Positions 28,727 to 30,960 of a DNA stretch of 64,000 nucleotides are shown piece by piece. The position numbers were made by a program, and so were the translations under genes. Source of the stretch: Fodinibius roseus (GTDB lineage: Bacteria; Bacteroidota; Rhodothermia; Balneolales; Balneolaceae); NCBI RefSeq assembly GCF_900129315.1, contig NZ_FQUS01000012.1, forward strand, positions 62,001-126,000, read 5' to 3'. Each line of letters begins with the position of its first letter. Within the stretch, counting starts at the first letter, position 1. The notes beneath the pieces are model-generated. The model saw nothing but the letters and a program-made list of their open reading frames with translations, did no database searches and was not told the origin of the DNA.

Positions 28727-29252
28727 AATGTAACTATATATGACGTAACAGGTTACGGGTTCAACGGGTAAAGGGCATCTCTCAGATGAATAGCGTTATA
28801 AGGTATCACATACATTCAGGGACTTTGTTTGCCGTCCGGCCAAAGTCGTCGAGGGGCACCATCCTGATATCCGACTAAGCAGTGTATCTCAATTGCGGAT
28901 GTTAAAAAAACGCATCCCGGCTTCCGGGGAAGTACTAAAAACCCTCTGATGACAATCAAGACGCCTTAGCGTCACGTAATCCCTTGCTATGAAGTACTCG
29001 TAATTTAACGCTCTGCATAAAATATGCAAGTTTTTTTGGCCGAGCACTTGTGATTCCCCAAAAAGATGCCAAAAACTACTGACTGTTCGAGCTGGCAGAA
29101 TGATCTGAGGAAGAATAAACCCACCACGGTCCCGCCCTGAAAAACCGCACTAAGTGACGGACACTCGGCTATACTAATCCTAAAATACTTTCAGGAGGAG
29201 ACAAGCCCGTTGGACTATATCTATGCTACGGCCCTCAATTCACCCCGGCCTT
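28727..29252. other. Gene-free stretch between the hydrolase and the IS110 region
   Basis: No convincing coding frame is present on either strand. The left end should contain the hydrolase promoter (minus strand). A weak terminator-like hairpin, TGCATA/TATGCA around an AAA loop at 29014-29028 followed by T7 at 29031-29037, lies in the plus direction. Composition is uneven, as expected for an insertion-prone site. Confidence 0.4.
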
Positions 29253-29381
29253 GAAAAGTCAGCGCCCCGGGTGGCGTACGCAAAGCGGAGGAAATAGAAA
29301 AATATTTGTCTGAACCCGACGGTGTCGGGTGAGTTTATATTTTTCTTCGGAGATGCAGCGTACGCCGGGCGCTGAGTTTTC
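29253..29381. repeat. 129-bp nested palindrome, structured DNA or RNA
   Basis: Four stems nest symmetrically. GAAAAgTCAGCGCCC (29253-29267) pairs with GGGCGCTGAgTTTTC (29367-29381), with one mismatch. GGCGTACGC (29273-29281) pairs with GCGTACGCC (29358-29366). GAAAAATAT (29297-29305) pairs with ATATTTTTC (29337-29345). ACCCGAC (29314-29320) pairs with GTCGGGT (29324-29330) around a GGT loop. There is no coding frame in it. It lies about 55 bp left of the structured leader of the IS110 element and may be a target-site structure, a remnant of another element, or an ncRNA. Confidence 0.75.
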
Positions 29382-29447
29382 TCAGCCGGCGACTCATATG
29401 TTTACCCCCTATTGATGAAGGCTAAATAATTTAGGTTGTTTATATAC

Positions 29448-29639
29448 CAACACCCCATGAATGTTCATGGGGTGTTGAGTCTGAGGGTTAACAAGGAGAG
29501 CGGGCTCGGCGACAAGCCCTTGCTGGCGCAAGAGGCTGTAAAAAAGGTTCTGCTCCCTCTCCTCAGGCGTGTAGGCTCAACCAGTACAAAGAGCCGACTT
29601 CCAGTCGAGCTCGTATTCAGCGTGAGTAAAGCCAACGCC
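29448..29639 (+). ncRNA. Candidate bridge RNA of the IS110 element
   Basis: The non-coding region 5' of the transposase folds into three modules. First, a perfect 14-bp hairpin CAACACCCCATGAA / TTCATGGGGTGTTG (29448-29461 with 29464-29477). Second, a large stem: CTGA (29481-29484) with TCAG (29563-29566) and GGAGAG (29495-29500) with CTCTCC (29557-29562), with a 10-nt bulge GGGTTAACAA and an inner hairpin GGGCT/AGCCC. Third, GGCGT (29566-29570) with ACGCC (29635-29639) enclosing GGCTC/GAGCC (29574-29578 with 29591-29595) around loop AACCAGTACAAA. Known IS110 bridge RNAs have exactly a 5' stem-loop followed by a target-binding and a donor-binding loop. Limits are approximate. Confidence 0.6.
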
Positions 29640-29688
29640 GGTCCTCATTTAGTAAGCTAAGGCTAATCTAAGAAATTAATAGCATAGA

Positions 29689-30732
29689 ATGAATTTTTCA
29701 GATTCCCAAGATGTTTCCCCTCAATCGGTCGGTATTGATATAGCAGAAAAAACCTTAGAAGTACGATTAGGAGCTGTCACCAGCGGTCACCAGTACCACT
29801 TTACCCGCCCGGAGCGCTTTCCCAACACCAAGGAAGGATTCCGGCAGATGATACGGTGGGTCCAATCAAAAAAGAAGGCCAATGAGTGTTGGTTTATCAT
29901 GGAAGCGACCGGGGTGTATTATGAAGAACTTGCGTATTTCCTGCATCAAAAGAATCGGCAGGTATGCGTGCTGGTTCCCAAGCGGGTGCACCATTGGGCC
30001 AAAAGCCTACCGATCAAATCCAAGACCGATGCTATTGATGCTCGTCTGCTGGCCCGCTACGGGCTGGAACGACGCCCCGAGCGGTGGCAACCAGGCTCGG
30101 AGCGATTGCGACAAATAAAAGCGCTTCTGCGCGAACGCGGGCAGCTCCAGCAACAACGCACTCAGCTGATCAACCGCCGGCATGCAGCGCGCCAGGCATG
30201 GAATCATCCCGAAAGCAGTCTCCATCGACTGACTGACCATATCCAGCAGATTGATGGCTATATTGAACAGATTACCCACGAACTGGACCAACTCTGGCAG
30301 TCTGAGGAGCAGCTGGCCGAACCGATCCGTCGCATTGGCCAAATTACCGGCTTAGGCTGCCGGAGTGTGTTGCAGGTAGTAGCTGAAACCAACGGATTTG
30401 CCTTGATCAGTAATCGCAATCAGCTGGCCTCTTACGCTGGACTCGATGTGGTGCTCGACCAGTCGGGGCGACGCCGGGGAACAACCAAAATATCGAAACA
30501 GGGAAATGCCCGTATTCGGCAGGCTCTCTATATGCCGGCTGTGTGTGCCAGTCAGCATAACCGGGCTCTGCGCGCATTTTATAAGCGCCTGGTCGCCAGA
30601 CACCCGGACCACAAAAAGATCGCTCTGGTCGGTGTAATGCGGAAACTCCTGCTGTTAATTTACAGCTTGTGGAAAAGTGGTCAGCGGTACGATCCGGAGT
30701 TCCATTACCGTCAAATTACCAACAAAGCCTAA
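29689..30732 (+). CDS. IS110-family transposase/recombinase (DEDD type)
   Basis: 347 residues, full length for the family. The N-terminal RuvC-like domain carries the DEDD residues: Asp17 in VGIDIAEKTLEV, Glu72 in FIMEATGVYYEEL, and Asp114/Asp117 in SKTDAIDARLLARYG. A coiled-coil linker (about residues 130-205, rich in RQIKALLRERGQLQQQRTQL) precedes the C-terminal Transposase_20 domain with GQITGLGCRSVLQVVAE and NRNQLASYAGLDVVLDQSG, where Ser248 is the likely catalytic serine. IS110 recombinases join DNA guided by an RNA made from the element's own non-coding end. The upstream 250 bp has the right structure for such an RNA. No frameshift or stop interrupts the gene. Confidence 0.96.
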   Translation: MNFSDSQDVSPQSVGIDIAEKTLEVRLGAVTSGHQYHFTRPERFPNTKEGFRQMIRWVQSKKKANECWFIMEATGVYYEELAYFLHQKNRQVCVLVPKRVHHWAKSLPIKSKTDAIDARLLARYGLERRPERWQPGSERLRQIKALLRERGQLQQQRTQLINRRHAARQAWNHPESSLHRLTDHIQQIDGYIEQITHELDQLWQSEEQLAEPIRRIGQITGLGCRSVLQVVAETNGFALISNRNQLASYAGLDVVLDQSGRRRGTTKISKQGNARIRQALYMPAVCASQHNRALRAFYKRLVARHPDHKKIALVGVMRKLLLLIYSLWKSGQRYDPEFHYRQITNKA

Positions 30733-30789
30733 CATATTTAAGCTTCACCGGTCCATTTAACTTGACTTTAGACACAGTACCTTTTTTTG

Positions 30790-30825
30790 TGTTCCGTTTT
30801 TTTCGTCGCTGAAAAAAATGGAACA
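30790..30825. terminator. Strong hairpin downstream of the IS110 transposase
   Basis: TGTTCCGTTTTTTTC (30790-30804) pairs with GAAAAAAATGGAACA (30811-30825), 15 pairs including one G-T, around a GTCGCT loop. It lies about 60 bp after the transposase stop, just outside the proposed element. It could act as a terminator protecting flanking genes, or be the pre-existing terminator of the locus. Confidence 0.6.
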
Positions 30826-30960
30826 CCCCCCGTAAGATTTACAATCTCTATAAATCCCATAGATTATTACTAAGGGATACACTCGGAAATCCACTCCTCA
30901 GTTTTGTATCTTTGGCTGGCCTTCACAAATACTCAGCGTTTGATTGCGATATAGAGATTC

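What the first reader, a model, noticed from the sequence alone, without database searches (positions are those of the whole stretch)
29448..29639. Structured upstream region of the IS110 element looks like a bridge RNA
Directly 5' of an intact DEDD transposase, a non-coding stretch of about 190 nt has a perfect 14-bp 5' hairpin followed by two larger stem-loops with internal loops. This is the architecture of the bridge RNAs that guide IS110 recombination (a 5' stem-loop, a target-binding loop and a donor-binding loop). The 10-nt bulge GGGTTAACAA (29485-29494) and the loop AACCAGTACAAA (29579-29590) would be the guide segments. An apparently complete element in this phylum could be a new natural example.
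Basis: partly seen in the sequence, partly recalled or inferred. Interest (0 to 1): 0.75.

Follow-up and report, generated by a model that had tools for sequence, protein, structure and literature searches.

The report
Bridge RNA of an IS110 element
A jumping gene in this bacterium carries a folded guide RNA that matches both the jumping gene's own ends and the repeated palindromic DNA site it landed in, so it very probably moves by the recently described RNA-guided 'bridge' mechanism; it is a good new example, not a new kind.

Summary
The 192-nt stretch folds far better than shuffles (z -6.35) and lies upstream of an intact DEDD+Ser IS110 recombinase. An uninterrupted copy of the insertion site elsewhere in the genome fixes the element at 29395-30782 with a CT core. 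With the ends known, four guides can be read: left target guide 29506-29513, right target guide 29540-29546, left donor guide 29582-29587, right donor guide 29622-29626. A 61-62% identical relative in another genus has a different target and correspondingly different target guides, while donor guides and ends are kept; swapping targets destroys the match. Across 13 elements own targets fit own RNAs better than in any of 100,000 permutations, and target-loop helices show compensatory changes. The target is a dispersed hairpin repeat, as IS621 uses REP sequences. In the circular form the joined ends would make a promoter before the RNA. A covariance model from relatives alone scores the window only weakly (E 0.3). 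No RNA or recombination was measured. New member of a known kind.

The parts
29395..30782 (+). complete IS110-group element, 1388 bp (equally 29393-30780; the CT core is shared)
   Evidence: uninterrupted copy of the site in G000:C44 (L019): left and right flanks abut with a 2-base CT overlap
29393..29394 (+). left CT core
30781..30782 (+). right CT core
29386..29392 (+). left target half CCGGCGA
   Evidence: empty site; matches left target guide
30783..30789 (+). right target half TTTTTTG
   Evidence: empty site; matches right target guide
30774..30780 (+). left donor ACAGTAC (right end of element)
   Evidence: conserved in relatives with matching guide changes
29395..29401 (+). right donor CATATGT (left end of element)
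30762..30767 (+). TTGACT, -35-like half of the promoter formed at the circular junction
   Evidence: same spacing in relatives; function inferred
29397..29402 (+). TATGTT, -10-like half of the junction promoter (17 nt after TTGACT in the circle)
   Evidence: function inferred
29448..29477 (+). 5' stem-loop, 13 bp in RNA (14-bp perfect palindrome in DNA)
   Evidence: 14 bp in L017; shorter or absent in the other relatives
29479..29568 (+). target-binding stem-loop
29506..29513 (+). left target guide TCGGCGAC (7 Watson-Crick pairs and 1 wobble to the target bottom strand)
   Evidence: mean pairing probability of 29507-29513 in the RNA is 0.25
29540..29546 (+). right target guide AAAAAAG
   Evidence: mean pairing probability 0.14
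29569..29638 (+). donor-binding stem-loop
29582..29587 (+). left donor guide CAGTAC
   Evidence: mean pairing probability 0.60
29622..29626 (+). right donor guide GUGAG (pairs with CTCAT, one G-T wobble)
   Evidence: mean pairing probability 0.58
29689..30732 (+). IS110 recombinase, 347 aa; D17 E72 D114 D117 and S259-G260 align with IS621 D11 E60 D102 D105 S241-G242
29244..29392 (+). left part of the host's hairpin repeat (target), interrupted by the element
   Evidence: 12 other copies of at least 139 nt at 76-89% identity; long hairpin (0 of 100 shuffles as low)
30783..30829 (+). right hairpin of the same repeat

Best explanation
29448-29639 encodes the bridge RNA of an intact IS110-group insertion sequence (29395-30782). 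Inferred cycle: the recombinase excises the element as a circle by recombination at CT. The joined ends create a promoter (TTGACT-17-TATGTT) that transcribes the left end. The RNA binds the recombinase. Its first loop reads the host target CCGGCGA-CT-TTTTTTG, found in a dispersed hairpin repeat, and its second loop reads the circle junction ACAGTAC-CT-CATATG. Strand exchange at CT then inserts the element. Shown here by sequence: the ends, the empty site, the four guide matches, co-variation of guides with targets across relatives, the conserved target-loop helices and the catalytic residues. Inferred: transcription, binding and recombination.
For: Fold z -6.35. Intact recombinase, 2.4e-59 to NCBIfam 'IS110 family RNA-guided transposase', 1.6e-35 to IS621 and 1.2e-35 to ISCro4, catalytic residues kept. 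Ends from an empty site. Target guides: on the summed, ordered score only 2 of 6538 other CT sites in the window do as well with this RNA, and 1 of 6538 with the L017 RNA; exchanging the two targets destroys both matches. 13 elements: own targets beat all of 100,000 permutations for left and for right guides; the own target ranks first of 13 for 10 of 13 RNAs. Donor-guide changes follow donor changes (ACAGTAC, ACAGAAT, GCAGTAC, ATAGTAC; CTCAT, CTCGT, CTCCT). Target-loop helices: 15 of 17 pairs with double changes, 0 of 500 shuffles as high. Stem arms: 0 (target stem) and 1 (donor stem) of 100,000 permutations as good. -35/-10 spacing kept at the circle junction.
Against: No Rfam family matches, even at E up to 5. 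A covariance model built from 11 relatives without the window and L017 ranks the window locus first of three hits, but only at 12.9 bits, E 0.3, next hit 12.1, and does not report L017 at E up to 10. Handshake guides match 12 and 11 of 26 positions, against about 6.5 expected if bases were equally frequent, which is suggestive at most. Three RNAs (L044, L064, L066) do not rank their own target first. Own partner is the best donor-stem arm in only 4 of 13. The element is single copy in its genome, so mobility is not shown. The donor guides are more paired than free in the predicted fold (0.60, 0.58).
Confidence: 0.94

Rival explanations
1. The leader is only a structured 5' UTR or attenuator that represses recombinase translation in the integrated state; the guide matches are incidental.
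For: Strong hairpins directly before the gene; regulation of the ISPpu9 transposase by two small RNAs and by its mRNA 5'-UTR structure is published (PMC8450116, title and start of abstract in the listing).
Against: Loops change together with target and donor sequences across 13 elements, which a UTR would not need. Both roles could coexist.
Confidence: 0.04
2. A bridge-RNA element that has decayed and no longer works (a qualification of the best explanation, not an alternative origin).
For: Single copy in the genome; first donor-guide base mismatched and one wobble; weak score with the relatives' model.
Against: Open reading frame, all six checked residues, both ends, core and four guides intact.
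Confidence: 0.12
3. An IS1111-type element with a guide RNA downstream of the gene.
For: Same recombinase superfamily.
Against: The downstream non-coding end is about 50 bp and the long non-coding end with the guides is upstream; no long subterminal inverted repeat is apparent at the junction by eye.
Confidence: 0.01

Closest known systems
IS621 (IS110 group, Escherichia coli) bridge RNA and recombinase (PMC11208160, PMC11208158; passages seen)
   Same: RNA upstream of the gene; 5' stem-loop, target loop, donor loop; CT core; 5' side of each loop reads the bottom strand and 3' side the top strand; junction promoter; DEDD plus serine; target in repeated extragenic palindromes; a G-T pair at the fifth donor position from the core (G161-dT12 there, 29622 here)
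   Different: protein similarity only about 126 bits; different donor and target sequences; 45 nt between the predicted -10 and the 5' stem-loop here; the repeat hit is a different one
seekRNA of ISEc21 (IS110) and of IS1111-type elements (PMC11187229; passages seen)
   Same: upstream non-coding region with target-complementary stretches in the IS110 order; 347 aa lies in the 345-385 aa range given there for the ISEc21 cluster
   Different: there the RNAs were found experimentally; here no RNA was sequenced. Whether the window protein belongs to the ISEc21 cluster was not tested
REP-targeting IS110 elements ISPa11, ISPpu9, ISPpu10 (PMC1525189; passages seen)
   Same: insertion into repeated extragenic palindromes
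   Different: other repeat, other host lineage

Membership tests
IS110-group insertion sequence with bridge RNA | DEDD RuvC domain plus Tnp domain with catalytic serine | tested here: met
   PF01548 and PF02371, NF033542, residues
IS110-group insertion sequence with bridge RNA | core dinucleotide at both ends, no target duplication beyond it | tested here: met
   CT at 29393-29394 and 30781-30782; empty site L019
IS110-group insertion sequence with bridge RNA | structured RNA in the left non-coding end with 5' stem-loop and two internal loops | tested here: met
   a long 5' stem-loop (13-14 bp) is seen in the window and L017, not in the other 11
IS110-group insertion sequence with bridge RNA | first loop complementary to both halves of the target | tested here: met
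IS110-group insertion sequence with bridge RNA | second loop complementary to the circle junction | tested here: met
   (left 6 nt, right 5 nt with one wobble)
IS110-group insertion sequence with bridge RNA | promoter restored at the circle junction | tested here: inconclusive
   sequence pattern only: TTG at fixed spacing in 12 of 13 junctions; activity not measured
IS110-group insertion sequence with bridge RNA | handshake guides | tested here: inconclusive
   12 and 11 of 26 positions
IS110-group insertion sequence with bridge RNA | RNA expressed, bound by recombinase, required for recombination | not testable with these tools
   needs an experiment
Rfam 15 families | match to a curated covariance model | tested here: not met
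   no match
IS1111 group | guide RNA downstream of the gene | tested here: not met
   the right non-coding end is about 50 bp

The most novel reading that the evidence does not exclude
The window element and its relatives are a branch of bridge-RNA elements whose donor junction doubles as a host-type promoter (TTG-N20-TATGTTTG) and whose target loops have been reprogrammed again and again onto each host's own palindromic repeats, with a window/L017 sub-branch that carries a much longer 5' stem-loop than its cousins; within the wider branch a clade works without the fourth D of the DEDD site.
Probability: 0.3. Interest if true: 0.55.

Novelty: new member of a known kind. Interest (0 to 1): 0.4.

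Why it matters
It gives a wild bridge RNA with all four guides assigned, plus 12 relatives with ends, targets and guides read the same way, in a lineage that the main texts of the two founding papers do not mention (no word beginning 'Bacteroid' in PMC11208160 or PMC11187229). That is a ready test set for programmable recombinases and for how target loops are rewritten in nature. It also adds a lineage to the known habit of IS110 elements of landing in repeated palindromes.

Tried and rejected
Rfam at gathering and at E up to 5: nothing. Viral-contig scan: no relative. Empty site of L017 in its own genome by exact pattern: none. Plasmid search with the L042 protein at E up to 1e-70: none. Held-out covariance model: weak for the window, silent for L017 and for the 5'-truncated L013, strong for L012, L018, L040, L065, L067 (E 7e-8 to 9e-15); its automatic structure had only 7 pairs, so it is mostly a sequence model. 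RNAalifold on the MAFFT alignment found the target stem and its apical hairpin but not the donor stem; the donor stem was tested without alignment. The pair counts use the structure that RNAalifold derived from the same alignment, so they lean towards it. Handshake guides: suggestive at most.

Limits of the counts. Of 7 loci, L014 and L015 (partial) were not taken on; of 8 plasmid records, four were fetched. Of the 22 relative loci, L045-L048 (identical to L042 over the 1402-bp element) were dropped as copies, and L012, L013, L018, L040, L065, L067 because an end was not found, leaving 12 plus the window. Ends of relatives were picked by the donor motif, so the donor tests are partly circular, and the left donor guide was anchored at its own best position; the target tests do not depend on that. 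Some guide positions (L017, L066; L038) were corrected by eye. The L009 right end is the least certain.

Full report
What is there. Window 29689-30732 encodes a 347-aa IS110 recombinase with both Pfam domains, an equivalog-level match to NCBIfam 'IS110 family RNA-guided transposase' (2.4e-59) and sequence matches to the solved ISCro4 and IS621 recombinases (1.2e-35, 1.6e-35). D17, E72, D114, D117 and S259-G260 align with the IS621 residues D11, E60, D102, D105 and S241-G242 (the roles are from passages of PMC11208158; the chain numbering runs two higher than the paper's). Upstream, 29448-29639 folds with z -6.35 against shuffles.

Ends and target. A DNA search of the window's own genome (40 of 45 candidates scored) showed that both flanks belong to one dispersed repeat: 12 other places match at least 139 nt of the left part at 76-89% identity. 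In contig C44 (L019) the left and right flanks meet without the element, overlapping by CT. This sets the cores at 29393-29394 and 30781-30782. The target is CCGGCGA-CT-TTTTTTG and the circle junction ACAGTAC-CT-CATATG. The 13-mer CGGCGACTTTTTT occurs three times in the genome besides the interrupted copy, and the 19-nt site (one free position) three times without mismatch. Joined, the repeat folds into two long hairpins (-95.6 kcal/mol; 0 of 100 mononucleotide shuffles as low, mean -59.3) and the element sits between them. Of the 12 other copies, 10 are overlapped by no ORF of 100 aa or more; the copies in L019 and L021 lie inside ORFs of 138 and 124 codons whose reality was not tested.

Guides. 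In the order known from IS621 (5' side of each loop reads the bottom strand, 3' side the top strand; PMC11208160 passages), the RNA holds TCGGCGAC (29506-29513), AAAAAAG (29540-29546), CAGTAC (29582-29587) and GUGAG (29622-29626). Against 6538 other CT sites of the window, 2 do as well on the summed, ordered score, 1 on both halves apart.

Comparison. The nearest relative found, L017 (61-62% identity), in one other genome of the 92 of the family (own included), has the same ends but sits at GGGAT-CT-CCCAAAA. Its RNA reads GGGATC and TTTTGGGAG in the corresponding places. Exchanging targets between the two drops the matched runs from 7+7 to 3+4 for the window's target and from 6+9 to 0+4 for L017's. 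With 11 more distant elements (34-44% identity), own targets score 88.5 (left) and 92.5 (right) against permuted means of 74.9 and 78.0, with no permutation of 100,000 as high; 10 of 13 RNAs rank their own target first. Loci left out are listed under Tried and rejected. Donor guides follow donor changes as well (0 of 100,000 for each side), with the circularity noted there. The best illustration is the right donor guide: ATGAG, ACGAG and AGGAG go with ends CTCAT, CTCGT and CTCCT, and three RNAs (window, L041, L064) have G in place of the first A, a wobble (L066 likewise).

Structure. The target stem and its apical hairpin are supported by 15 of 17 pairs with double changes and 80.6% paired cells, against 63.1% in shuffles and at most 62.4% when slid. 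Without an alignment, own stem arms pair better than permuted ones: target stem 0 and donor stem 1 of 100,000 permutations as good; own partner best for 10 and for 4 of 13. The 5' stem-loop is long in the window and L017 (13 and 14 bp; 3 and 0 of 200 shuffles reach that, G-U pairs allowed). Elsewhere it is shorter (L011 and L064; 11 bp at the extreme left end of L042) or not above chance. A model trained on the 11 others finds the window locus first but weakly (E 0.3) and does not report L017, so this pair is a divergent branch.

Promoter. At the circle junction TTG begins 23 nt before TATG(T/A)T or TATCTT in 12 of 13 elements (L011 has TAG; L064 was read by eye because the script's pattern missed it). 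In the integrated left flank it stands there in 1 of the 12 that the script read (L041); in L044 and L064 a TTG lies one base off. TATGTTTG also fits the Bacteroidota -7 consensus TAnnTTTG, which I recall and did not look up. The pattern agrees with the junction promoter published for IS621 (passages).

Repeat targeting. In the single-contig genome G129 five copies of one relative, identical over 1402 bp, sit at the same site GGCTGT-CT-AAAAAGG, and nine uninterrupted exact copies of that 17-nt site remain. In G138 sites one or two mismatches from the target of L038 recur, on both strands at three places. For the other relatives this was not tested. IS110 elements in repeated palindromes are known from Proteobacteria (PMC1525189 passages).

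Host. It is unnamed. Named relatives of the protein come mostly from Bacteroidota (Saccharicrinis, Pontibacter, Hymenobacter, Rufibacter and others), with one partial match labelled Ignavibacteriae; that the host is near them is inference.

Literature. Searches for IS110 with bridge RNA (19 papers, 18 listed), for IS110 with REP sequences and IS621 (15 papers), with Bacteroidetes added (0 papers), and for IS110 with palindromic intergenic repeats and Bacteroidetes (4 papers) did not show this element in titles or abstract starts; of these papers I saw passages of four (PMC11208160, PMC11208158, PMC11187229, PMC1525189). Others predicted a bridge RNA in 85.7% of the IS110s they examined (PMC11208160), so finding one here is expected, not surprising.

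Noticed in passing
L040, L042 (= L045-L048), L043, L071: In this subclade (4 of 4 genomes found among 395 searched) the fourth D of the DEDD site is A or C (window D117; IS621 D105), with D, E, D, S and G kept where covered (L071 is cut before the first two and has an internal stop). L042 exists as five copies identical over 1402 bp at five places, so it moved recently, yet mutation of D105 in IS621 is reported to abolish recombination (PMC11208158 passage)..
   Followed up: partly
window 29244-29392 and 30783-30829; G000 C11, C17, C20, C23, C25, C38, C42, C44, C54: A dispersed two-hairpin repeat of about 200 bp in the host genome; several copies match only one half. Origin unknown.
   Followed up: partly
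L040, within 420 bases before the gene: The left end of this relative appears twice in tandem, each with the start of a target loop (seen by eye).
   Followed up: no
L012, L039, L044: Flanks of these relatives look like repeated palindromic sequences that I recall as common in Bacteroidota; not tested by any search.
   Followed up: no
window 29403-29447: 45 nt between the junction -10 element and the 5' stem-loop; either an unpaired 5' leader or a second start site (one promoter-like match at 29401-29430, 0.4 expected by chance in the scanned stretch).
   Followed up: no
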